A stretch of 64,000 nt of DNA from Flavobacterium nackdongense (lineage in GTDB: Bacteria > Bacteroidota > Bacteroidia > Flavobacteriales > Flavobacteriaceae): contig NZ_CP037933.1 of NCBI RefSeq assembly GCF_004355225.1, positions 496,001 through 560,000 on the forward strand, written 5' to 3'. The notes under the pieces are model-generated. The model was not told the DNA's origin, did not search any database, and saw only the letters and a program-made list of their open reading frames with translations. This document shows positions 1 through 38,527 of the stretch, piece by piece (the first letter of the stretch is position 1; the number at the start of each line of letters is the position of its first letter). Position numbers and translations under genes: made by a program.

Positions 1-884
1 GAAACTCTATTGTTTTGTGCTGGATTTGGATAGACTTTCAAGGTATTTTTTTCAAATTTATCAACACTTAATGCAGTTCCTGGACTAGTTAAGTTCCATA
101 CCTTTCGAACGTAGATTCCGTCAACAATAGCATTTTGTCCTAAAGTAGCTTGACGTAACGCCACTCCTTGAATTGTTCCGGCATCGTCGCCGAGCGGCAA
201 TGCAGCCGGTGGACTTGCTGGTGTTGCGGTAAAAGGGCCTAATGTTGGAGTAGCGGGCTCTGTGCTTATAGCATCTCCTTCAGCAAATACAAATAAACTA
301 ACTTCATCATTAAAATCTCCCGTATTAAATTTGTATTTAACAACTACTAAATAGGTTTTGGTAATGTCTAAATCAGCGGTAACATTGCTTGGAGCGATAT
401 ATGCAGATGCATTGAAATTTAATCCCAATTTAAATTGTGTGGCAGTGTTTGTTCCTTGTATTACAAAAACTCTTCCTCTATACGAAGTATTTGTAGCCGT
501 ATAAACAGGAGTAGTTTCATTTGAATATTTTACAAAATGGAAAAAATAATCACCTGTTCCAGTTGATGTAATAGCTGCTGATGGTTTAAACAAAAAAGAG
601 GCATAAGCAGCTCCATCAGTAATATTACCGGCTAGTGGTTTATTTACATCGACCCCGGTATTGTTGACCAATGCTGCATTACCCACACCACTACCAATAT
701 ATCCTGTCCAAGTCAAACCTCCATTGTTGACTGCCGTAGAATTAGCAGTTGCACTATGTATATACCAACCATTTGCACTTAATAAGGCAGCAGCTGGATA
801 ATCAAAATTTTCAACTAAATAATTGGTTTGCCCAAAGAAGCAACTAGTTGATATTAAAGTAATAAAAAGGTAAATTTTTCTCAT
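1..884 (-). CDS. Secreted protein with T9SS sorting domain, 3' end outside window
   Basis: The reading frame opens at an ATG (882-884) and stays open to the left edge, giving about 294 visible residues. It starts with a signal peptide, MRKIYLFITLISTSCFFG, with probable cleavage just before the QTNYLVENFDY segment. The body is rich in Asn, Thr and Gly, as in Bacteroidota extracellular beta-sandwich proteins. The last visible residues, KNTLKVYPNPAQNN, are the start of a type A T9SS C-terminal sorting domain, so about 60-70 residues are probably missing. Substrate or function cannot be told. The protein should be exported by Sec and then secreted or surface-attached by T9SS. Confidence 0.85.
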   Translation of the reverse strand, partial: MRKIYLFITLISTSCFFGQTNYLVENFDYPAAALLSANGWYIHSATANSTAVNNGGLTWTGYIGSGVGNAALVNNTGVDVNKPLAGNITDGAAYASFLFKPSAAITSTGTGDYFFHFVKYSNETTPVYTATNTSYRGRVFVIQGTNTATQFKLGLNFNASAYIAPSNVTADLDITKTYLVVVKYKFNTGDFNDEVSLFVFAEGDAISTEPATPTLGPFTATPASPPAALPLGDDAGTIQGVALRQATLGQNAIVDGIYVRKVWNLTSPGTALSVDKFEKNTLKVYPNPAQNNRV

Positions 885-975
885 AATAAATGTTTTAAAG
901 TTAATAGTTCTTACAAATTTATGATGAAATACGTCGAGAAATTAATACCAATTAAAAAATTTAATTAATACCAAT

Positions 976-1059
976 CTACCTATTATTCAACTTCGCTTTT
1001 TCCTTAATGATATCGCTTATTTTTCGGTTATCGATTTTGCTTTCAAGCCAAGAAATGAT
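976..1059 (-). pseudogene. Displaced copy of the 3' end of the conserved 514-aa gene
   Basis: On the minus strand this stretch encodes IISWLESKIDNRKISD followed by IIKEKAKLNNR and a stop. These 27 residues are identical to the C-terminus of the protein encoded at 9364-10908. The DNA differs at about eight positions, all silent, and a 35-bp core (1010-1044 versus 9398-9432) is identical. Homology stops abruptly upstream of residue IISW. There is no start codon or remaining gene body, so this is a fragment and not a gene. Both copies face the same way and bracket the HU, TPR and restriction-modification genes. Confidence 0.75.
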
Positions 1060-1123
1060 GTAGACTTCGTTTGTTTTATTTTCGAAAAATGAAAATAAGG
1101 CGGTAGGTGCGAGCCGAAGCTTC

Positions 1124-1507
1124 TCACTTTTTCTTGTAAAACTTCAATTGATTCAGCATCAACTTTAATTTTTTTCCGGGTCGAAAAACAATAGAGCTTC
1201 TCGAAATATTTTTGGCAGTAAGCTCCTCGGGACTAGCGCTACTAGTGCCTTGAACACTCACCTGAAAGGAGCCCAGTTGTCCCAAACGCACAATATTTCC
1301 TTGGTCAAGTGACTTTGAAATTTCGGTAACCAATCCAATAATAACCGCCGAACAATCAGAGGGGGTCGCTGAGCAACTAGCCGATACGCGTTCTGACAAT
1401 TCTTCTAAATCGATAACACCACTTTGGGTGGCTCTTGGATAATACCGCAATGGATTTTGCGGTTGACTCGGGTTGGTTCGCCCAACTGCTGTAAAAGGAA
1501 CTGCCAT
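1124..1507 (-). CDS. HU-like DNA-binding protein
   Basis: The 127-residue protein has the layout of the HU/IHF fold variants common in Bacteroidota (HU-HIG type). An N-terminal FTAVGRTNPS segment is followed by helices (LEELSERVSASCSATPSDC), then VRLGQLGSFQVSVQG, where the GxFxV turn leads into the beta arms, and FRPGKKLKLMLNQ. It probably binds DNA non-specifically as a dimer and helps shape the nucleoid. It stands alone, with non-coding repeat DNA on one side and the displaced gene fragment on the other. The start is the first ATG in the frame. Confidence 0.8.
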   Translation of the reverse strand: MAVPFTAVGRTNPSQPQNPLRYYPRATQSGVIDLEELSERVSASCSATPSDCSAVIIGLVTEISKSLDQGNIVRLGQLGSFQVSVQGTSSASPEELTAKNISRSSIVFRPGKKLKLMLNQLKFYKKK

Positions 1508-1564
1508 AGCTTGCTTTATTTTGAATAAGTACCAATTAAAAAAAACTTTAGGTTTAATTAGTGT

Positions 1565-1778
1565 ATAATAACTCGTTGGGTGAAATTATTAAATTTTTAG
1601 AAATAGTAAAATTGAAACGCATAGAATCATAGAAAAAAGAGTTGGATAGCCCAGTTCTTGGGTTCACATAGCTATGATTTACTAAAATCAAGCGAAGCGT
1701 CTTAATAAAATTAATAAAAAACTATGATTCTATGTGTTTAAAAAAAATTAAATTGAATTACACCCAACGGGTTATAAT
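1565..1778. repeat. Palindromic element A with terminal inverted repeats
   Basis: The ends are inverted repeats around GTTGGGTG (1575-1582) and CACCCAAC (1761-1768), extendable to about 18 bp with two mismatches. Inside is a second perfect 12-bp inverted repeat, ATAGAATCATAG (1621-1632) and its complement (1722-1733). The inner sequence is not protein-coding. The same architecture recurs at 2240-2467, so this is a small non-autonomous repeat, either MITE-like or REP-like. Confidence 0.7.
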
Positions 1779-1788
1779 AATAATTTTT

Positions 1789-1933
1789 CGTCAATTCGAG
1801 TGATTTTCTCCCGAAGCGTCGGGAAGAAAATTGTATCGAGAACAAGAAAAATTTCGGTAAGAACGATTCTCGATACATTTTTTGTTTCGTCCCGCTAGCT
1901 AGCGACACGAAACAAAAAACACTCGAATAGACG
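1789..1933. repeat. Multi-hairpin, four-way-junction-like palindrome
   Basis: An outer 14-bp stem with one mismatch (1789-1802 with 1920-1933) encloses three hairpins in sequence. The first is 1803-1814 with 1819-1831 (one bulge, loop AGCG). The second is GTATCGAGAA at 1833-1842 with 1867-1876. The third is a perfect 13-bp stem, 1878-1890 with 1907-1919, capped by the palindrome CGCTAGCTAGCG. Drawn as RNA or single-stranded DNA it would be a cloverleaf. It is not a tRNA: no anticodon, T-loop or acceptor features are present. Confidence 0.7.
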
Positions 1934-2033
1934 TTTTTAATAATTGCCCCTAAAGTGTTAAATACTACTGTTAGACAAAGCTATAAATTATTCTTGAACC
2001 GACAAACATTCGACCGCGCTCACTTTATAATCT

Positions 2034-2065
2034 GACCGCCCTCCGCTTGATAAGTGAGGGCGGTC
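2034..2065. repeat. GC-rich hairpin with an alternative pairing
   Basis: GACCGCCCTC (2034-2043) and GAGGGCGGTC (2056-2065) form a perfect 10-bp stem with a 12-nt loop. The 3' arm can also pair almost perfectly with an upstream segment CCGCGCTCACTT (about 2014-2025). Two mutually exclusive hairpins are therefore possible. No U-tract follows, so it is not a standard terminator. Confidence 0.55.
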
Positions 2066-2239
2066 AATTGTATCGCTCAGCCCGACGGTTTTTCAGCTTT
2101 GTACTTATCTTAATTTGTGCTGCAGCTTTGAACACCAGCAGCAAGATGGTTCGCTTTAAAAAAAAAGTCACAAATTTACTTCACTTGTTCACTATCGCCC
2201 GAGTCACCCATTGTAACTATTTTTTATTTTATGTAAGCC

Positions 2240-2467
2240 GTTGGGTGAAATTCAATTTTTAAAGTTTTTTAACCACATAGACATATTTTTATTGCGATTT
2301 TAAAAGGTGTTTCACTTTATTTGAGAAAACATGGCTATGCGAACCCAAGCCCCGAGCAATAGCGAACAGGCGAAGCAATTGGGCTATCAAATTCTTTTTT
2401 TTCTATGTATATGTGGTTTAATTTTTCATTTAATCCATTAATTGAAATTTCAATAATTAAACCCAAC
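2240..2467. repeat. Palindromic element B with terminal inverted repeats
   Basis: It shares the plan of element A. GTTGGGTG (2240-2247) faces AACCCAAC (2460-2467), and an inner repeat CCACATAGACATA (2273-2285) faces its complement (2404-2416, one mismatch). The interior carries the 18-bp word AGCGAACAGGCGAAGCAA (2361-2378), which recurs at 11124 and 21394. The bases around it differ from element A, so only the ends and inner arms are conserved. Confidence 0.7.
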
Positions 2468-2543
2468 GGGTTTTATTTAAAATTGAATTACACTAACCTT
2501 ATTCTCTTCCTAAATTTGCATCAGTATTGTCCGATAAAAAAGC

Positions 2544-2686
2544 ATATAGTCCCTACGGGACAAATTTATGACTTATAACGGTCTCACTACCAATATTTAA
2601 CCTCTACGAGGTATGCTCCCTTAGGAGCAAAATGTCGGTAGAATTAAATAGGTTAACCCATTTTAAATGTCCCGTCGGGACTATAT
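2544..2686. repeat. Symmetric array of small CG-rich hairpins
   Basis: The outer arms 2544-2562 and 2668-2686 are inverted repeats matching at 18 of 19 positions. Each arm also folds on itself (TCCC-TAC-GGGA and TCCC-GTC-GGGA). Between them lie CCTC-TAC-GAGG and GCTCC-CTTA-GGAGC. This type of element is common between genes in Bacteroidota genomes. I see no open reading frame in it. Confidence 0.65.
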
Positions 2687-2922
2687 AGGTTAGGCTAATT
2701 AGCTTATTTTTAATTTTGACCGGACAACGATGCATTTGTGTACTAAAAAATAGCTGTAATTCGTGTTTATTCGTGTAATTCGTGTCTAAATATTTTTAAT
2801 GAGTTTGACCTTATAAATTGCCTTTTGAAACCTATTTTTTATTAGATTTGTTTCCATTAAAATAATCAATCGCTTTTCGAAAATAAAATCTTCAAAAAAA
2901 GTAAAAATTCCTTTGACGCTTT

Positions 2923-4901
2923 ATGCAAATTATTCATAAAATTGATGGTTTTCTATTTACCATTTTTCCTAAAATAGCACAGGGGGGGGTAATAGCTTAT
3001 TAATCAACGAGTTAAAAAAATACTACACTTTTGGCCCTTTTGCTCCAAAAGTTTCTATTACCGATGATTGGGTTAGCATAGAAATTGACACCCCAACGAT
3101 TCTTGCCCAAGAGGCCGATTACCAAAAAACGATTGCCCTTTGCGAAAAAGGAAACTACCCAGAGGCAAAATCCATCCTAGAACAACTTATCGAAAACAAT
3201 CCCACCAATTCGGAATTTCATCGAATTATGGGACAAATTCTTTCTGACGAAGGCCATCAGGAAGCCGCCATCAATTGTTTGATTGACGCTTTGCGCTGGG
3301 ATTCCAGAAACAATTGGGCCTTGTTGATGATGGGAAACATTCAAGCCAAATTCCTAAAAGATGTTCCCACGGCTCTAAAATATTACGAGCAAGCCTTGCA
3401 GCTAAACCAATTGGATGCCATCACTTTATCTAATATTGCCTATTTGTTGTTTCAAGAAAATAGGCTAGAGGATGCCAAAAAACAGGCTTGGGAAGCGTTG
3501 AGAATTTCCGATAATTACGCCAATGCGCATTTCATTCTTGCCTTAATTGCCGAAAAAGAAAACGATTGGCATTCCGCTTTTTATAGCAGTATTCAATGTT
3601 TGAAATACGCAAATAGCAGCAATGAATTGTACCAAAATGCGTTTCGAAAAGCTTTTGAAATCGCCGGTACTGTTGCCAAAGACTTCGATGGCAAAAAGCT
3701 CCTGTATGACTACAAAAGCCAGTTAGAAAAAGAAGGTGGAATTCCGATTGTGATTGAGGCCGATGAAACGATCCCAACGGCTGCCAAAATAGAATTTGCC
3801 GAAAGATACCACCGCAACGAGCATCGGGTGAAATACAAAAGCAAGTATCCAGCTGTGGAGCATTTGGTGATGCACGAAATGACACATCTCGATTTGGTTT
3901 TGCAAGCCCGAAAAGCAAACGCAAATCAGGTTTTTATTTCGACTTCCGAAAACAAACAAAATTTTCTATCGAGTATTGAGCCAGCCATACAGAAACTGAA
4001 AAAGATGGGACTGAACGAGGCAGTACTTACCACCTTTTCGGATGGGATTTTCAATGGCTTGAATCTGCAAACCTACAACACGCCGATAGATGTTTTTATC
4101 GAAGACTTTCTGTATCAGGACTATGCCGAATTGCGACCCTACCAATTCTTATCGCTCTATAATTTACTCGACGAAGCGATTAAATCCGTGACCGACGAAC
4201 GAATTTTAGAACTGATTCCTGCCGCGATAATAGCTAAAACTAAAATGTACAGTCTGGTCAATGCGCTGCAATTTGTCGATTTGTTTGGTATTAATCGTAT
4301 TGCGGAGTTCCAAGCAAGTCCCCAAGAATTGCAACAAGCCGAAGCCTTTTACCAACAGTTTTTAGACCGCAAAGACCACCACCAAGCGGGTGAAGAATTC
4401 GAATTGATACGCCAATGGGCGGAAGCCTTGGCATTGGACTCCTTTTTTGCACTAGAAAACGAAACCCCATTAGCCCCCAAAACCACTATCGATGATTTTC
4501 TGGCGCAACTCCAGCAAGATCCTTTTGGTGTAAACGAGGCCGAAGACCCGAAGCAAGCCTTGGAAATGGAGCAGTTTCAAAAAGCGCAAGAGGAAATAGG
4601 CGTAAACATGGCGGTCACGATGTTTATGGTGGAAGCCTTGCAGTATTTCAAAGCGATGCCTATGGAAACCATCAAAAAAATAGCGTTCGAAATTGCGATG
4701 ATTGGGCAACAAGGTATCGATGTTACAATTGACAATTACATCGTAGGCAGTATTCCTAACAAGCGGTTCTCGGGCTATCAATTGTTGAGTTTTTATTATG
4801 TGAGTTGGGCTTTGGCAGTGCCAGAGCACGTTGGGGAGTTGGGGCTGGATTATGAAGAGGAGTTTGAGATGGCGGTAAAAATGGGGAAACTGAATAATTA
4901 G
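2923..4901 (+). CDS. TPR protein with HExxH motif, apparently frameshifted at a G8 tract
   Basis: An intact frame runs from 3228 to 4901 (557 residues), but coding sequence clearly continues upstream. From ATG 2923 the protein reads MQIIHKIDGFLFTIFPKIAQ up to a run of eight G (2982-2989). One extra G (or two fewer) would join it to NSLLINELKKYYTFGPFAPK and the rest, about 660 residues in all. As given, the 5' frame stops a few codons after the tract. The C-terminal frame has at least three tetratricopeptide repeats (residues about 1-130 of the 557-residue frame). A HEMTH motif follows at residues 216-220, which could bind zinc. The rest is helical and unfamiliar. A peptidase role is possible but unproven. 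The protein has no signal peptide and is probably cytoplasmic. The shift is either a sequencing slip, a mutation or phase variation. Confidence 0.75.
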
Positions 4902-30167: not shown

Positions 30168-30215
30168 TTTGTAGCTTTAATAATTTATAAAATTGTTTTT
30201 TTGAAAACGAATACC

Positions 30216-30296
30216 ATAGCCCCGATAGCAGTGGAAATCCTATTGTGCCGGTGTTCGGCACAATAGATTGTAACGAATAGCGGGAAATAGCTCCTA
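30216..30296. repeat. REP-like palindrome
   Basis: TATTGTGCCG (30241-30250) and CGGCACAATA (30256-30265) form a perfect 10-bp hairpin with loop GTGTT. This is framed by AGCCCCGATAGC and AATAGCGGG, which extend an imperfect outer stem. From memory, elements beginning with this AGCCCCGATAG word are frequent between genes in Flavobacterium. It separates two helicase genes on the same strand. Confidence 0.75.
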
Positions 30297-32577: not shown

Positions 32578-32856
32578 ATGTTGAGAATTTTAAAAAATAT
32601 CGCCATTTTAGAGGGAGTTTCCTATTTAGTATTACTTTTTAATATGCTTTTTATCAAACCTTCAAATATAGAACTTTACAAAACTTTATTATATCCCATA
32701 GGAATGAGTCACGGTTTATTGTTTATAAGCTATGTTTTGCTGACCATTTTACTAATCAAATCTCAAGCTTGGAGTTACAAAACATCTTTGGTAATTCTTG
32801 GCGCTTCCCTTCTCCCCTTTGCCACTTTTTATGTAGAGAAAAAATATTTGCGTTAA
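32578..32856 (+). CDS. DUF3817 small membrane protein
   Basis: This is a 92-residue protein with three predicted membrane helices (about 8-27, 38-60 and 68-84). The DUF3817 pattern is clear: LRILKNIAILEGVSYLVLLF, with Glu13 in the first helix, and GMSHGLLFISYVL in the second. The last residues, VEKKYLR, are cytoplasmic-type. Function unknown. A TAGTTTTG box lies upstream at 32544-32551, but the expected -33 site is absent. Confidence 0.85.
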   Translation: MLRILKNIAILEGVSYLVLLFNMLFIKPSNIELYKTLLYPIGMSHGLLFISYVLLTILLIKSQAWSYKTSLVILGASLLPFATFYVEKKYLR

Positions 32857-32920
32857 ATATAATTCACTGAATAAAAGTAATTTCTATCTCTTTTTTTTAT
32901 ATTTTTAAACAAAAAAAAAG

Positions 32921-33307
32921 ATGGAACAACGCGATATTTTTTTAAAAGAGTTCAGAGGAAATCCCCTCGGTGCTGTCTCTGCACAAACTTCTTCCGACGA
33001 ATTATTTCAAAATCAAGTACTTCGCCCTATTTTAAAATTACAGAACACCATTTTTATTGCTTCTTTTCACAATTATCTGGTCAAGAACAGAATCGATTTT
33101 AGCACTTTTTCAATAGAAAAAAAAATGGCAATGATTGAAAATTCGATTCAAAAAGACATCAAATTCCGAAATGCTTTAAAAGGGATGGTAATTGCTTTAT
33201 TTACCCTCGAGGAATATGAGTTTTATATTCAAAATTCTTCTAGTCTTAACAAAAGGATGATGGGAATGCTTATCGAAAGACTAAAAAGTCAAGTGCAATT
33301 ATTATAA
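32921..33307 (+). CDS. Conserved hypothetical protein
   Basis: This is a 128-residue helical protein that I cannot assign to a named family. It has a loop-rich start (MEQRDIFLKEFRGNPLGAVS), a central helix pair and the segment KDIKFRNALKGMVIALFTLEEY. No signal peptide or membrane segment is visible. It stands between the DUF3817 gene and the amidoligase cluster, with gaps of 64 and 121 bases, so it need not be part of either. Confidence 0.6.
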   Translation: MEQRDIFLKEFRGNPLGAVSAQTSSDELFQNQVLRPILKLQNTIFIASFHNYLVKNRIDFSTFSIEKKMAMIENSIQKDIKFRNALKGMVIALFTLEEYEFYIQNSSSLNKRMMGMLIERLKSQVQLL

Positions 33308-33428: not shown

Positions 33429-34142
33429 ATGAAAGAAGAATATTTTAAATGGTACTCCCCCAATTTAAGTAGAGAAATAGAAATGCTCGTTTTTGGTCAC
33501 GCTGGCTATCCGGTAATTCTTTTTCCAACTTCGATGGGAAGCTATCACGAGAACAAGGATATGGGTTTGATTGAGTCCGCCAAATGGTATATCGATCAAG
33601 GATTAGTCCAAATATTTTGCCCAGCAAGTATCGACAAAGACAGTTTTTACAACAAGCAAATTCATCCTGTACACCGGATTCAAAATCATACTTGGTACGA
33701 TAAAATGATTTGTCACGAAATTGTCGAAAAAGTGAAAGACAATACCTATTCAGGTAAAGTAGTTGTTGCCGGTTGCAGTTTTGGTGGCTATCACGCCGCT
33801 AATTTTGCTTTTCGGCATCCAGGTTATGTCAGTCATCTTTTTTCTATGGGAGGTGCCTTCAATATCAAAAGTTTTATGGATGGATACCACGATGATAACG
33901 TTTTTTACAACAGTCCCGAAGATTATTTATACGGTTTGAACGACCACGAATTGTGGAATATGGACATTTGTTTAGGGACATCCAACTGGGATATTTGCTA
34001 TGATGCCAATCTTAAATTGAGTAAAGTTTTGAGCAATCGCAACATTCATCATTGGCTTGATGTTCGACCAGACCGAGATCACGATTGGCCCGTTTGGAAA
34101 GAAATGTTTCCCCATTATTTATCCAGGATTAAGTTTTTTTAA
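33429..34142 (+). CDS. Alpha/beta-hydrolase esterase of the amidoligase cluster
   Basis: This 237-residue serine hydrolase belongs to the putative esterase (esterase D) family. The nucleophile Ser117 is in AGCSFGGYHAANFAF, and a His is available in RDHDWPVW near the C-terminus. There is no signal peptide, so it should act in the cytoplasm. It could release, trim or transfer a product made by the downstream ATP-grasp and GCS2 enzymes. The gap to the ATP-grasp gene is 40 bases. A TATTTTTG box at 33396-33403 precedes the gene, but I see no good -33 element. Confidence 0.82.
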   Translation: MKEEYFKWYSPNLSREIEMLVFGHAGYPVILFPTSMGSYHENKDMGLIESAKWYIDQGLVQIFCPASIDKDSFYNKQIHPVHRIQNHTWYDKMICHEIVEKVKDNTYSGKVVVAGCSFGGYHAANFAFRHPGYVSHLFSMGGAFNIKSFMDGYHDDNVFYNSPEDYLYGLNDHELWNMDICLGTSNWDICYDANLKLSKVLSNRNIHHWLDVRPDRDHDWPVWKEMFPHYLSRIKFF

Positions 34143-34182
34143 AAGTATTTAAGATTGAAGTAGTAAGATAAAAGATAATTAT

Positions 34183-35124
34183 ATGAAGAAAATTGGAATA
34201 TTATTCGGAATGGAAGATACTTTTCCGCAGGCGTTTATCGATAGAGTAAACTCAAAAAATGAAAAAGGCATTATTGCGGAAGCCGTTTCTATTGACAAAG
34301 TAGTTCAAAATAAAGATGGCGAATATGCGGTAATAATTGATCGAATTTCGCAAGACGTCCCGTTTTACAGAGCCTACTTAAAGAATGCTGCTTTGACAGG
34401 AACCAATGTCATCAATAATCCGTTTTGGTGGAGTGCTGACGATAAATTTTTCAATAATTCATTAGCAGATACACTTGGGGTTCCCCTACCCAACACCGTG
34501 ATTCTACCGTCGGCGGAACATCCTACAGATACTACCGGAAAATCGTTTCGAAATTTGAAATACCCTATGGATTGGGAAGGAATTTTTGATTACATAGGAT
34601 TTCCAGCTTATATGAAACCTTATGCTGGTGGTGGCTGGAAAAATGTGTACAGACTTGAGAATAAAGAAGAATTTTGGGAAAAACACCAAGAGACTGGACA
34701 ACTAGTAATGATGTTACAGGAAGAAATTGTTTTTACCGAATATTTCCGTGTGTATTGTTTGGGGCGCAAGGATGTTCATATCATGCAATACGAACCCCGA
34801 AATCCGCATCATTTGCGCTATGTTATTGATGGTCCGCCAGTTTCAAAAGCACTTTTAGCTACCGTTAAGGATTATACATTGCGACTTTGCAAAGGTTTAG
34901 GCTATGATTTTAATACGGTTGAGTTTGCAGTTCGAGATGGAATTCCGTACGCAATTGATTTTGGAAATCCTGCTCCTGATGCCGAAATCACCTCGGTTGG
35001 AGCCGAAAATTTTGAATGGGTAGTAGAACATGCCGCCAAAATGGCTATTGCTGCCGCCAAAAAACAAAAACCAGGCAAAATAAATTTAACTTGGGGGACA
35101 TTCATCAAAGACGCCGTTAAATAA
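34183..35124 (+). CDS. ATP-grasp ligase (RimK-like)
   Basis: This is a 313-residue ATP-grasp protein. WWSADDKFF (residues 82-90) resembles the entry segment of the fold. FPAYMKPYAGGGWKNVYR (about 139-156) is the ATP-binding glycine-rich loop. FNTVEFAVRDGIPYAIDFGNP (about 246-266) carries the Glu/Asn metal site. Such enzymes couple ATP to ligation of a carboxylate with an amine or thiol through an acyl-phosphate. The acceptor is unknown. It is followed by the GCS2 gene after 92 bases, so the two ligations could be consecutive. Confidence 0.85.
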   Translation: MKKIGILFGMEDTFPQAFIDRVNSKNEKGIIAEAVSIDKVVQNKDGEYAVIIDRISQDVPFYRAYLKNAALTGTNVINNPFWWSADDKFFNNSLADTLGVPLPNTVILPSAEHPTDTTGKSFRNLKYPMDWEGIFDYIGFPAYMKPYAGGGWKNVYRLENKEEFWEKHQETGQLVMMLQEEIVFTEYFRVYCLGRKDVHIMQYEPRNPHHLRYVIDGPPVSKALLATVKDYTLRLCKGLGYDFNTVEFAVRDGIPYAIDFGNPAPDAEITSVGAENFEWVVEHAAKMAIAAAKKQKPGKINLTWGTFIKDAVK

Positions 35125-35216
35125 ATCCAAAAAAGCAAAAAGAAGGAACTATCAAAAAAATAGATTTTATATCATTTCAATTTTTAGCTTTTTTAATTTT
35201 TTCAGATTAAAAAATT

Positions 35217-36326
35217 ATGTCAAGAAAACTGCCTGTTTTTACTCTTGGTGTCGAAGAAGAATACCAAATTATAGATCCTGAATCTCGGGATTTACGCTCT
35301 CATTTATCTAAAATTGTCGATGGAGCCAAAATTATTTTGAACGAACAAGTCAAAGCCGAAATGCATCAATCGGTGGTAGAGGTTGGTACCAATATTTGCA
35401 AAAATATACACGAAGCCGAGACTGAAATTAAATCCTTACGTACTGCGATTGTGGGTTTGGCAGACCTTCAAGGGTTGATTGTTGGAGGAGCAGGAACACA
35501 TCCTTTTTCGAAATGGCAGGACCAACCCATTACCGATGATCCGCGCTATCACAATATCATCAATGAAATGCAAGATGCCGCCAGATCCAATTTGATTTTT
35601 GGTATGCATTGCCATGTAGGAATCGAAAATCGGGAAATTGGGATACAATTGATGAACCAAGCCACTTATTTTTTGCCTCATATTTTTGCGATTTCAACCA
35701 ATTCCCCTTTTTGGGAAGGCAGAAACACAGGTTATAAATCCTATCGAACTAAAGTTTTTGATAAATTTCCGCGTACAGGCTTGCCTGAATATTTCGAATC
35801 TGTTTCTTCTTATGATGATTATTTAGACACTTTGGTCAAAACCAATTGTATCGATAATCCAAAAAAGATTTGGTGGGATTTGCGGCTGCATCCCTTCTAT
35901 GACACTATCGAATTTCGGATTTGTGACATGAGTTTAACCGTAGATGAAACGATTTGTATTGCAGCGATTATTCAAGCCATTGTGGCAAAATTGTATAAAT
36001 TGTCGATGCACAATATGAGTTTCAATATTTATCGATTGGCCTTGATTCGTGAAAACAAATTTAGGGCTGCTCGTTATGGCATTGATGGTCACATGATCGA
36101 TTTTGGATTGCATAAAGAAGTTGAAACGAAGTTGCTAATTGTCGAATTATTGGAGTTTATCGATGATGTAGTCGATGAATTAGGTAGCAGAGATAAGATC
36201 AATTACGTCTATGAAATTATGAAAAACGGAACAGGAGCCGACCGGCAATTGAAAGTTTTTGAAGAAACTAATGATTTGACAAAAGTTGTGGATTTCATAA
36301 CAACTGAGTTCACAAAAGGGCTATAA
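35217..36326 (+). CDS. Carboxylate-amine ligase, GCS2/YbdK family
   Basis: The 369-residue protein is homologous to glutamate-cysteine ligase type 2 (YbdK). It has FTLGVEEEYQIIDPES (residues 8-23), GMHCHVGIE (129-137), a STNSPFWEG segment and TIEFRICDMSLTVDE. The Glu cluster GVEEE is the expected Mg/ATP site. It joins a carboxylate (gamma-Glu in the archetype) to an amine using ATP. A glutathione pathway needs a glutathione synthetase. The neighbouring ATP-grasp protein could serve as that, but the co-located glutamine amidotransferase and second ATP-grasp protein point to a different product. Substrate unknown. Confidence 0.9.
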   Translation: MSRKLPVFTLGVEEEYQIIDPESRDLRSHLSKIVDGAKIILNEQVKAEMHQSVVEVGTNICKNIHEAETEIKSLRTAIVGLADLQGLIVGGAGTHPFSKWQDQPITDDPRYHNIINEMQDAARSNLIFGMHCHVGIENREIGIQLMNQATYFLPHIFAISTNSPFWEGRNTGYKSYRTKVFDKFPRTGLPEYFESVSSYDDYLDTLVKTNCIDNPKKIWWDLRLHPFYDTIEFRICDMSLTVDETICIAAIIQAIVAKLYKLSMHNMSFNIYRLALIRENKFRAARYGIDGHMIDFGLHKEVETKLLIVELLEFIDDVVDELGSRDKINYVYEIMKNGTGADRQLKVFEETNDLTKVVDFITTEFTKGL

Positions 36327-36368
36327 TTGCATTTTTGTTAAAATTTTCCGCTTAAATTAACATTACCA

Positions 36369-36398
36369 TTGGCAATGCTTTTGAAAAAGGTATCTTTG
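36369..36398 (+). promoter_or_regulatory. Internal promoter before the glutamine amidotransferase gene
   Basis: TTG (36369-36371), 19 bases, then TATCTTTG (36391-36398) is a near-perfect Flavobacterium promoter. Transcription would start near 36404, about 20 bases before the ATG at 36425. It implies that the last two genes of the cluster can be expressed separately from the first three. Confidence 0.65.
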
Positions 36399-36424
36399 CA
36401 GAAAATTTATAATTTTCGAAAATA

Positions 36425-37255
36425 ATGAAAAATAACACCTTAAAAATAGCGGTTTTAGATATGTATGATGGCACTCCCAATCAAGGAATGCGTTGTATAA
36501 TCGATATTATTAATCGTTTCAATCAAATCGTTAGCTTTCAAATTTTTGATGTAAGAGGAAAATCAGAATTGCCCGAAATTACAGAATTTGATATTTACAT
36601 TTCGACAGGAGGACCAGGAAATCCAATGATTGGTGATGGTGATTGGGATTTGAAGTATTATGCTTTTATCGATGAATTGACAAAATGGAATAAAGAAAAC
36701 ACAGTAAAAAAGCACGTTTTATTTATTTGTCATTCGTTTCAAATGGCGTGTAAACATTTTGGTTTAGCCGAAATTACAAAAAGACACGACACTTCCTTTG
36801 GGGTTATGACCGTTCATAAAACCAAAGAGGGTCAAACCGATCCGCTATTTGAAGGTCTTGCCGATCCTTTTTATGCTATTGATTCTAGAGATTACCAAGT
36901 GGTACAGCCCAAATTGAGCGTTTTTGCCAAAAAAGGAGCCAAAATTATTTCTTTAGAAAAAATTAGAGATTACGTTAAATACGAAAGAGCTATTATGGCG
37001 GTGCGCTTTTCAGATTATTTTGTGGGAACGCAATTTCATCCCGAAGCGGATCCCATCAGTTTTATTGCCAATTTGAGAAATAAAGAATCAAAGGAAAAAA
37101 TCAAAAAAATGAAAGGCAATACCAAGTTTAGAAATATGCTGGAAGACTTGGTTGACGATGATAAAATTTACAAAACCAATGAAACACTGATTCCGAATTT
37201 CCTTCGATTTGCCATAAATGATTTGATGGTGAGCAAGAAAATATTGTCGAACTAG
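36425..37255 (+). CDS. Class I glutamine amidotransferase
   Basis: The 276-residue protein has the class I GATase triad: Cys102 in LFICHSFQMACKHFG, His205 in FVGTQFHPEAD and Glu207. The oxyanion loop STGGPGNPMIG (60-70) is also present. It resembles the GMP synthase amidotransferase domain but has no synthase part. It should hydrolyse glutamine and hand ammonia to a partner, or transfer gamma-glutamyl. The likely partner is one of the neighbouring ligases. The C-terminal 60 residues are basic and form an extension that I do not recognise. Confidence 0.88.
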   Translation: MKNNTLKIAVLDMYDGTPNQGMRCIIDIINRFNQIVSFQIFDVRGKSELPEITEFDIYISTGGPGNPMIGDGDWDLKYYAFIDELTKWNKENTVKKHVLFICHSFQMACKHFGLAEITKRHDTSFGVMTVHKTKEGQTDPLFEGLADPFYAIDSRDYQVVQPKLSVFAKKGAKIISLEKIRDYVKYERAIMAVRFSDYFVGTQFHPEADPISFIANLRNKESKEKIKKMKGNTKFRNMLEDLVDDDKIYKTNETLIPNFLRFAINDLMVSKKILSN

Positions 37256-37336
37256 CTGTATAATGTATATTGTATTTTTGTATAATGTAATTTACGATCT
37301 ACAATATATAGCTATACGTTATACAAATCTTAAAGA

Positions 37337-38527
37337 ATGATAGACCGATACAGACAACTTTTTAATTCTCAATTTACTGACAAAAAGTATCAGGAATTCA
37401 AGGACGATATTGCTTCGGATTTTGATTATGCTCCCACTTTTCGCATTGGAGAAACGCCTTTTTTTATTTCCAATGAATTAAAAGCTCAAATGTTGGAAGG
37501 TTGTGCTGATGTTATAAAACTAATTCAACAGAACGACTTTAAAATACTTACAGAGAAATCATTAGAGTTAAATCAAAAAGTTCCTAACGAAGATGATCAT
37601 ACTACTTTCTTGGCCATTGACTTTGGAATTTGTGAAGAAAATGGAGTGGTTGTTCCAAAATTAATTGAAGTGCAAGGATTCCCTTCTTTGTATAATTACC
37701 AAATTAATTTATACGAAAAATTCAAGAATCATTATCCGTTTCTTTCCGAGTTGACACCGTTTATCAATAACATTACCATTGAGGAGTATTTTGAAACGCT
37801 GGAAGAAGTAATTTGCAACAATCATCCGAAAGAGAATGTCATTCTATTGGAAATTGAACCCGAAAAACAAAACACGAAAATCGATTTTTATTATTGCCGA
37901 AGAGATCTTGGCATTCCGATCGTTTGTGTTACCGAAATAATTAAAAAAGGCAATCAACTCTTTTACAAAAACGAAAACGGCGAAGAAATCCTTGTGAAAA
38001 GAATCTACAATCGCGTGATTTTTGACGAACTAGAATTACGACCTGATTTGAAACTGAATTTCCATTTTTCGGACGAGCTCGATGTGGAATGGGCCGGACA
38101 TCCCAATTGGTTTTTCCGAATTAGCAAGTATATTTTACCTATGCTCAAAGGCAAGTATTTCATCGAAACTACTTTGTTGAGCGATTTAACAGAAATCCCG
38201 GAAGACTTGGAAAATTATGTACTGAAACCTTTATTCTCTTTCTCGGGTTCGGGTGTCATTTTTCACGTTAAAAAAGAAGACATCGAAGCCGTAGTCGAAA
38301 AAGAATTGTACATTCTACAGAAAAAAGTAAATTACATCCCAATAGTGCAATCGCCCGACGGAAAAGTAAAATGCGAAGTGCGCGTACTTTGCGTCTGGAA
38401 AAAAGAAGATGCCGCTCCTACTCTACTCTGTAATTTAGCGAGATTGAGCCGTGGTGAGATGATTGGCGTGAAATTCAATAAAGATAAAGATTGGGTCGGC
38501 GGGACTTTGGCGTTGTTTGAGAGGTAG
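37337..38527 (+). CDS. Second ATP-grasp-like protein, possibly circularly permuted
   Basis: The 396-residue protein has no clear family that I can name with certainty. An acidic metal-site-like segment PKLIEVQGFPSLYN lies at residues 107-120. A glycine-rich loop, NYVLKPLFSFSGSGV, lies near the C-terminus (293-307). That order is opposite to normal ATP-grasp enzymes and suggests a circular permutation. KCEVRVLCVWK follows and could supply the last strand. The gene is 81 bases after the amidotransferase gene, on the same strand, so it should belong to the cluster. It may ligate the nitrogen donor or a second building block. Confidence 0.62.
   Translation: MIDRYRQLFNSQFTDKKYQEFKDDIASDFDYAPTFRIGETPFFISNELKAQMLEGCADVIKLIQQNDFKILTEKSLELNQKVPNEDDHTTFLAIDFGICEENGVVVPKLIEVQGFPSLYNYQINLYEKFKNHYPFLSELTPFINNITIEEYFETLEEVICNNHPKENVILLEIEPEKQNTKIDFYYCRRDLGIPIVCVTEIIKKGNQLFYKNENGEEILVKRIYNRVIFDELELRPDLKLNFHFSDELDVEWAGHPNWFFRISKYILPMLKGKYFIETTLLSDLTEIPEDLENYVLKPLFSFSGSGVIFHVKKEDIEAVVEKELYILQKKVNYIPIVQSPDGKVKCEVRVLCVWKKEDAAPTLLCNLARLSRGEMIGVKFNKDKDWVGGTLALFER

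What the first reader, a model, noticed from the sequence alone, without database searches (positions are those of the whole stretch)
33429..38527. Five-gene ATP-grasp/GCS2/glutaminase/esterase cluster: candidate for an undescribed amide-forming pathway
Five same-strand genes encode an esterase, a RimK-like ATP-grasp ligase, a GCS2 carboxylate-amine ligase, a class I glutamine amidotransferase with intact Cys102-His205-Glu207, and a second ATP-grasp-like protein with an unusual motif order. Three enzymes can activate carboxylates with ATP, and one supplies ammonia. The set does not match glutathione, mycosporine, cyanophycin or purine pathways as I know them. Computational surveys of amidoligases describe GCS2/ATP-grasp neighbourhoods, so families like these are known to co-occur. 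The product here is open: a modified peptide, an amidated metabolite or a peptide tag. No transporter or precursor peptide gene was seen.
Basis: partly seen in the sequence, partly recalled or inferred. Interest (0 to 1): 0.78.

Follow-up and report, generated by a model that had tools for sequence, protein, structure and literature searches.

The report
Widespread three-ligase peptide-bond gene cluster
Five neighbouring genes in a Flavobacterium-like bacterium belong to a gene set whose three core members occur together in about a quarter of the Bacteroidota genomes sampled; it has three different ATP-driven bond-making enzymes and one probable bond-cutting enzyme, and it probably builds a small glutamate-containing peptide-like molecule that has not yet been identified.

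Summary
The five genes are real, intact and at the stated coordinates. They belong to a conserved module. Among 395 Bacteroidota genomes, the RimK-fold ligase (127), the YbdK/GCS2 ligase (117) and the circularly permuted ATP-grasp (114) nearly always occur together (109-113 per pair; all three in 105), even when scattered around the chromosome. Of 80 named loci (the closest matches), 68 have the exact five-gene order. In 16 of 17 genomes with the RimK-fold gene but no last gene, a different permuted-ATP-grasp-like gene follows it. An M29-type metallopeptidase clade occurs in 8 genomes; all 8 have the three ligases and lack the 'glutaminase', and in 7 it sits in the glutaminase's slot. So the glutaminase-like protein more likely cuts an amide than supplies ammonia. 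Predicted folds match RimK/LysX/ArgX and YjfC/YgiC/glutathione synthetase. The genome has bacillithiol BshA; canonical GshA and GshB were not found. Best reading: NRPS-free assembly of a gamma-glutamyl pseudo-peptide by three ligases, with hydrolases for maturation or turnover; product unknown. One same-genus genome lacks the first two genes but keeps the other three. Other phyla could not be tested, and the 2009 amidoligase survey could not be read.

The parts
33429..34142 (+). est: alpha/beta-hydrolase (putative esterase) of the cluster
   Evidence: Ser117 in GCSFGG and His218 invariant in 16 of 16; profile matches solved esterases (5vol, 7.3e-10)
34183..35124 (+). RimK-fold ATP-grasp ligase of a family without a Pfam match
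35217..36326 (+). GCS2/YbdK-family carboxylate-amine ligase
   Evidence: PF04107 204.7 bits; TIGR02050 284.9 bits (cut-off 176.4); E13, E15, E55, H131, H133, R223, E232, R234 invariant in 15 of 15 including E. coli YbdK
36425..37255 (+). class I glutamine-amidotransferase-like protein, proposed amide/peptide hydrolase
   Evidence: PF00117 35.4 bits; C102, H205, E207 invariant in 24 of 24; its slot is taken by an M29-type peptidase in other genomes
37337..38527 (+). circularly permuted ATP-grasp ligase with the YjfC/YgiC/glutathione-synthetase fold

Best explanation
The cluster encodes an NRPS-free, ribosome-free assembly line for a small, probably cytoplasmic, glutamate-containing pseudo-peptide. 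Inferred order: (1) the YbdK/GCS2 enzyme phosphorylates the gamma-carboxylate of glutamate and joins it to an amine (gamma-Glu-X); (2) the RimK-fold ATP-grasp adds a further amino acid, as RimK, LysX and ArgX do with glutamate; (3) the circularly permuted ATP-grasp caps a carboxylate with an amine, amino acid or polyamine, as YgiC/YjfC, glutathionylspermidine synthetase and glutathione synthetase do; (4) the GATase-fold protein hydrolyses an amide or gamma-glutamyl bond (removing a protecting group, or turnover), a job that an M29-type metallopeptidase does in some other lineages; (5) the esterase removes or transfers an ester group. Shown here: gene content, intact catalytic residues, predicted folds, near all-or-none co-occurrence of the three ligases, replacement of the GATase-like gene by M29. 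Inferred: every substrate, the order of steps, and the product.
For: Co-occurrence in the same 395 genomes (counted in 58): RimK-fold and CP-ATP-grasp together in 110, first only 17, second only 4, neither 264; RimK-fold and GCS2 113/14/4/264; CP-ATP-grasp and GCS2 109/5/8/273; all three in 105. In 16 of the 17 without the window-type CP-ATP-grasp another protein, c2, follows the RimK-fold gene (weak CP_ATPgrasp_2 similarity shown for one). The trio persists where unlinked: of 28 neighbourhoods with the RimK-fold gene alone, 22 genomes have cpg and 20 have both cpg and GCS2 elsewhere. Folds. M29 for GAT: 8 of 8 genomes with the cluster-type M29 clade have the trio and no GAT; 8 of 41 trio genomes without GAT against 0 of 64 with it (Fisher p 3.4e-4). 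Other amide hydrolases recur: M17 aminopeptidase plus a fourth ATP-grasp; an Amidohydro_3-type gene beside cpg in 5 of 20 regions (Pfam on two of the five) and downstream of gcs2 in 3 of 120 (Pfam on one). YbdK has gamma-Glu:Cys ligase activity (title of a 2004 reference seen in PMC2588565); YgiC/YjfC are described as peptidylpolyamine synthetases in PMC12568646 (passage).
Against: No substrate or product was tested. Genome G154, same genus, keeps gcs2-gat-cpg but has neither est nor the RimK-fold gene there, so the trio is not strictly all-or-none; three more genomes (G144, G220, G318) have cpg without the RimK-fold gene, and five have cpg without a high-scoring GCS2. Six RimK-fold relatives under 45% identity stand alone in genomes with neither partner, so the family also has other uses. 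Fisher p-values ignore relatedness of genomes. 33 of 41 trio genomes without GAT also lack the cluster-type M29 clade, so a hydrolase is not universal; lower-scoring M29 paralogues occur in 25 other genomes, some with GAT. An outer-membrane-protein family lies near the cluster in 6 of 120 neighbourhoods (Pfam on one), which is against a purely cytoplasmic role there. The RimK-fold and permuted proteins fall below the curated family cut-offs they were tested against, so specificity cannot be transferred.
Confidence: 0.5

Rival explanations
1. Protein or peptide tagging: the ligases attach glutamate or amine groups to a cellular protein (as RimK does to ribosomal protein S6), and the GATase-like or M29 protein removes them.
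For: The RimK-fold protein's best structural matches are RimK, LysX and ArgX, which act on protein substrates (entry titles name RpsF and LysW); conjugation and deconjugation enzymes together would explain ligase plus hydrolase; no transporter among the five genes.
Against: No small carrier or precursor gene of 80 aa or more was seen to recur with the cluster: the only small upstream ORF (32921-33307) was recovered only from same-genus regions. Shorter ORFs were not compared. YbdK and GSH-synthetase-type enzymes are known for small substrates.
Confidence: 0.15
2. Ammonia-dependent amidation: the GATase hydrolyses glutamine and passes NH3 to one of the ligases to make a primary amide.
For: Class I GATase family above the Pfam cut-off with an invariant Cys-His-Glu triad; GAT sits between ligase genes in window-type clusters and beside the ligases in c2-type clusters; 84 of 86 GAT genomes have the RimK-fold ligase, and 11 of 11 est-rimk-gcs2-cpg genomes keep GAT elsewhere.
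Against: Missing from 41 of 105 genomes with all three ligases; replaced by an M29-type metallopeptidase in the same slot in 7 genomes, which is not expected to release ammonia from glutamine; its sequence matches include the MetA transferase family, so the fold alone does not prove glutaminase activity.
Confidence: 0.15
3. An unrecognised route to glutathione or a close thiol analogue: GCS2 makes gamma-Glu-Cys and the permuted ATP-grasp acts as a eukaryotic-type glutathione synthetase; the RimK-fold enzyme extends it.
Against: Own genome has BshA at 568.6 bits (cut-off 273.7), so a low-molecular-weight thiol is already explained; cyanobacterial and plant GshA models are far below cut-off (53.4 of 249.05; 30.4 of 463.15); a third ligase and a hydrolase are not needed for glutathione.
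Confidence: 0.12
4. Amine catabolism of the gamma-glutamylation type (as in putrescine use): GCS2 gamma-glutamylates an amine and the GATase-fold hydrolase releases the glutamate later.
For: Class I GATase-fold gamma-glutamyl hydrolases are known in that pathway (recalled, not from a call); a hydrolase replaceable by an aminopeptidase fits.
Against: Does not use two further ligases that are co-inherited. Among the neighbouring families outside the cluster's own, none recurs in more than 11 of 120 neighbourhoods; I did not annotate all of them, and a pyruvate:ferredoxin-oxidoreductase-like and DHO-dehydrogenase-like pair does recur in 7.
Confidence: 0.06

Closest known systems
YbdK / GCS2 carboxylate-amine ligases (TIGR02050, PF04107)
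   Same: Family membership, conserved residues shared with E. coli YbdK
   Different: 28% identity to E. coli YbdK; part of a conserved multi-ligase cluster, whereas ybdK in E. coli K-12 has no ligase neighbour among the ten features shown
RimK / LysX / ArgX glutamate ligases
   Different: 13-16% identity; 26.5 bits against a RimK family cut-off of 143.4; no Pfam match at E<=1
YgiC / YjfC peptide-polyamine ligases, glutathionylspermidine synthetase, eukaryotic glutathione synthetase, fungal Cp1B of E-64 biosynthesis
   Different: 12-13% identity; below Pfam cut-offs (16.0 of 29.3 and 14.2 of 23.1); no fused amidase domain in 396 aa
E-64 pathway (Cp1A-D; PMC12568646, passages read)
   Same: NRPS-free stepwise amide formation using an ATP-grasp of this fold
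   Different: Fungal; second amide made by an ANL-type enzyme, not GCS2 or RimK fold; no GATase-like protein mentioned in the passages seen
[quoted passage not shown]
   Same: Ligase of this superfamily next to a GATase-fold protein read as a peptidase; proposed for glutathione-related peptide metabolites
   Different: A different ligase family, in proteobacteria; no RimK-fold or permuted ATP-grasp mentioned in the passages seen
Amidoligase survey of Iyer et al. 2009 (not held; recalled only)
   Same: Describes ATP-grasp, GCS2 and peptidase neighbourhoods as a class (recalled)
   Different: Could not be read, so whether this exact cluster is listed is unknown

Membership tests
YbdK family carboxylate-amine ligase | Score above TIGR02050 and PF04107 cut-offs | tested here: met
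   284.9 of 176.4 and 204.7 of 21 bits
YbdK family carboxylate-amine ligase | Active-site acidic, His and Arg residues shared with E. coli YbdK | tested here: met
   E13, E15, E55, H131, H133, R223, E232, R234 invariant in 15 of 15; their catalytic role is recalled
YbdK family carboxylate-amine ligase | gamma-Glu-Cys or other gamma-glutamyl ligase activity | not testable with these tools
   needs purified protein
RimK alpha-L-glutamate ligase (TIGR00768) | Score above the curated cut-off | tested here: not met
   26.5 of 143.4 bits
RimK alpha-L-glutamate ligase (TIGR00768) | RimK/LysX/ArgX fold | tested here: met
Glutathionylspermidine-synthetase-like / CP_ATPgrasp_1 | Score above the Pfam cut-offs | tested here: not met
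   PF03738 16.0 of 29.3; PF04174 14.2 of 23.1
Glutathionylspermidine-synthetase-like / CP_ATPgrasp_1 | Full-length circularly permuted ATP-grasp fold | tested here: met
Class I glutamine amidotransferase | PF00117 score and Cys-His-Glu triad | tested here: met
   35.4 of 22.8 bits; C102, H205, E207 in 24 of 24
Class I glutamine amidotransferase | Supplies ammonia to a partner synthetase that always accompanies it | tested here: inconclusive
   2 of 86 GAT genomes lack the RimK-fold gene, but 43 of 127 RimK-fold genomes lack GAT, and the M29 clade is present in 8 of those
Canonical glutathione biosynthesis | GshA (PF04262) and GshB (TIGR01380) in the genome | tested here: not met
   PF04262 no match at E<=0.001; TIGR01380 68.4 of 299.05 bits; bifunctional GshF not tested
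Graspetide (ATP-grasp RiPP) cluster | Conserved precursor peptide gene next to the ATP-grasp gene | tested here: inconclusive
   No small partner seen to recur among ORFs of 80 aa or more in 120 neighbourhoods; shorter ORFs were not compared

The most novel reading that the evidence does not exclude
A widespread but unnamed small molecule of Bacteroidota, a gamma-glutamyl pseudo-peptide capped with an amine or polyamine (a functional counterpart of glutathione or glutathionylspermidine in bacteria such as this one that carry a bacillithiol gene), made by a co-inherited set of three structurally different amide-forming ligases and trimmed by interchangeable hydrolases.
Probability: 0.3. Interest if true: 0.85.

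Novelty: new variant of a known kind. Interest (0 to 1): 0.6.

Why it matters
Three structurally different ATP-dependent amide ligases are inherited together in 105 of 395 sampled Bacteroidota genomes, in a number of them without being neighbours, which points to one shared metabolite of general use. One of the ligases matches no Pfam family. Cultured species of Flavobacterium, Algoriphagus, Dyadobacter and Pedobacter carry the whole five-gene cluster, so the product can be sought by gene deletion and mass spectrometry. The replacement of the GATase-like gene by an M29-type peptidase gives a testable clue that the step is hydrolysis, not ammonia supply.

Tried and rejected

Rows dropped before counting: 7 RimK-fold hits below 45% identity and 12 GCS2 hits below 340 bits were left out of the co-occurrence table. 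For M29, only the 8 genomes with matches above 500 bits are counted as the cluster clade; the other 25 of 33 genomes score below 130 bits. Of 133 other RimK-fold genomes, 120 neighbourhoods were fetched; 13 were not. For cpg-centred and gcs2-centred regions only 20 and 4 were fetched. Ten paper searches were run; none listed a paper that I recognised as describing this cluster, but subscription papers are mostly missing from that library. Of four papers opened I saw passages only.
Full report
Observation. The window holds five complete + strand ORFs at exactly the reported coordinates, with 40-98 nt between them and a convergent gene after the last. Pfam and NCBIfam place gene 3 firmly in GCS2/YbdK and gene 4 in class I GATases, and gene 1 loosely among alpha/beta-hydrolases; gene 2 has no Pfam match and gene 5 only sub-threshold matches to permuted ATP-grasp families. 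Conserved residues are kept across relatives: esterase Ser117 and His218 in 16 of 16; RimK-fold K145, R189, E247, D259 and N262 in 39 of 39 cluster-type sequences (K145, R189 and E247 in at least 90% of 29 more diverse ones); GCS2 residues in 15 of 15 including E. coli YbdK; GATase Cys102, His205 and Glu207 in 24 of 24; permuted ATP-grasp D95, E111, Q113, K297 and R349 in 22 of 22. The catalytic meaning of these residues is recalled from the families, not tested.

Conservation of order. Of these 80, 68 have est-rimk-gcs2-gat-cpg in that order, in Flavobacterium, Algoriphagus, Belliella, Indibacter, Dyadobacter, Pedobacter, Winogradskyella, Polaribacter and others; 9 of the 12 others were flagged as lying near a contig end. 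The 80 are the closest matches, so this is not an unbiased sample. In a broader set of 120 neighbourhoods from unnamed Bacteroidota genomes (of 133 other genomes with the gene) the same-strand orders were: est-rimk-gcs2-gat-cpg 30; rimk alone 28; est-rimk-gcs2-cpg 11; rimk-gcs2 10; est-rimk-c2-gat-c4 6; rimk-gcs2-cpg, rimk-gcs2-M29-cpg, est-rimk-c2-gat and rimk-gcs2-gat-cpg 5 each; the other 15 fall into nine rarer arrangements. All 11 genomes with est-rimk-gcs2-cpg have the GATase-like gene elsewhere. The flanking genes differ between families: outside the cluster's own families, none of the neighbouring families recurs in more than 11 of 120 neighbourhoods.

Co-inheritance without linkage. 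The same 395 genomes were searched for four proteins, and the tables combined. RimK-fold (at least 45% identity) is in 127, permuted ATP-grasp in 114, GCS2 (at least 340 bits) in 117, GATase-like in 86. RimK-fold and permuted ATP-grasp co-occur in 110, with 17 and 4 exceptions. RimK-fold and GCS2 co-occur in 113, with 14 and 4. Permuted ATP-grasp and GCS2 co-occur in 109, with 5 and 8. All three are in 105, of which 64 also have the GATase-like gene. Of the 17 RimK-fold genomes without the window-type permuted ATP-grasp, 16 were fetched, and all 16 have another protein (c2, about 470 aa) after the RimK-fold gene; the one tested matches CP_ATPgrasp_2 at E 1.8e-5, below cut-off. In 28 of 120 neighbourhoods the RimK-fold gene stands alone; 22 of those 28 genomes have cpg elsewhere and 20 have both cpg and GCS2, while the other six are the under-45% relatives and have neither. 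The Fisher values treat genomes as independent and are therefore too small. A within-genus look avoids part of that: three genomes of the window's genus (the window's included) have all four genes, and 20 listed ones lack cpg, gat and gcs2 and are not among the RimK-fold positives either.

Results against a strict trio. Genome G154, same genus, keeps gcs2, gat and cpg (72-83% identical, complete ORFs) but has neither est nor the RimK-fold gene at that place, and the contig is 21.6 kb long, so this is not an assembly edge. G144, G220 and G318 have cpg without the RimK-fold gene. G037, G064, G158, G178 and G212 have cpg without a high-scoring GCS2.

The hydrolase slot. Between gcs2 and cpg some genomes have, instead of the GATase-like gene, a 339-aa protein whose one Pfam match is Peptidase_M29 (55.8 of 27 bits) and whose one solved match is aminopeptidase AmpS. 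A search of the 395 genomes found that clade at high score in 8 genomes; all 8 have the three ligases and none has GAT. In 7 of the 8 it lies between gcs2 and cpg (six; G251 by the coordinates); in G208 it is unlinked. That is 8 of 41 trio genomes without GAT against 0 of 64 with GAT (p 3.4e-4). The other 33 trio genomes without GAT lack this clade too, and weaker M29 paralogues occur in 25 further genomes, some with GAT. In two families an Amidohydro_3-type gene sits directly before cpg (5 of 20 regions; two of the five checked by Pfam), and one lies downstream of gcs2 in 3 of 120 neighbourhoods (one checked). An M17 aminopeptidase and a further ATP-grasp lie beside the cluster in others. I read this as an exchangeable amide-cutting step. 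An obligate ammonia supply is hard to square with it, but a dispensable one is not excluded.

Is it glutathione? The own genome has BshA for bacillithiol over cut-off, no PF04262 GshA match and no GshB over cut-off; GshF was not tested. The GCS2 protein is far below the cyanobacterial and plant GshA models. A cluster-dependent thiol remains possible because YbdK is reported to have gamma-Glu:Cys ligase activity (reference title seen) and the permuted enzyme has the fold of eukaryotic glutathione synthetases.

Interpretation. The best-supported reading is stepwise, NRPS-free assembly of a small glutamate-containing pseudo-peptide by three ligases, with an exchangeable hydrolase and an esterase for trimming or turnover. 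The five genes include no transporter and no neighbouring family recurs widely, so a cytoplasmic role is likelier than a secreted product; against that, an outer-membrane-protein family lies near the cluster in 6 of 120 neighbourhoods (one checked), and not all neighbours were annotated. [quoted passage not shown] Substrates, step order and product are inference.

Novelty. Clusters of ATP-grasp and GCS2 ligases with peptidases are a known kind (recalled from the 2009 survey), so this is filed as a new variant of a known kind. The points that I did not find in print in ten library searches are the Bacteroidota-wide co-inheritance of the three ligases and the GATase/M29 exchange; the 2009 amidoligase survey was not readable here and may list the neighbourhood.

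Noticed in passing
L256 (genome G154), 371-4363: Same-genus genome with gcs2-gat-cpg intact but est and the RimK-fold gene missing from between gcs2 and the upstream small ORF: a natural test of what the first two genes add.
   Followed up: partly
window 32578-33307: A DUF3817 membrane protein gene and a 128-aa ORF of no known family precede the cluster; both also lie upstream in three same-genus genomes (L031, L071, L256), with a 418-aa gene between them in L031 and L071. The 128-aa ORF was grouped with no neighbour from other families.
   Followed up: partly
window 30214-30291 (+): Flavo-1 RNA, 78.5 bits (gathering 42), between two helicase genes; function of this RNA family is unknown as far as I recall.
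   Followed up: no
L040:4331-8226, L036:1839-5319, L161, L164, L203, L216, L230: A second module beside the cluster in several lineages: M17 leucyl aminopeptidase and a Ddl/dapdiamide-synthase-like ATP-grasp, with a putative esterase in L036 and L040; probably part of the same chemistry.
   Followed up: partly
L086, L089, L097, L099, L103, L108, L120: In seven neighbourhoods a pyruvate:ferredoxin-oxidoreductase-like gene and a dihydroorotate-dehydrogenase-like gene lie upstream of the esterase gene (Pfam checked in L097 only).
   Followed up: no
L151 (Lentimicrobium MAG contig, 8,020 bases): 97% identical RimK-fold gene in a short contig of a distant lineage: looks like a binning error rather than transfer.
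   Followed up: no
G000:C1:3782912-3783628 (outside the window): A second ATP-grasp of the glutathione-synthetase/RimK type (68.4 bits to TIGR01380, below cut-off) elsewhere in the same genome.
   Followed up: no
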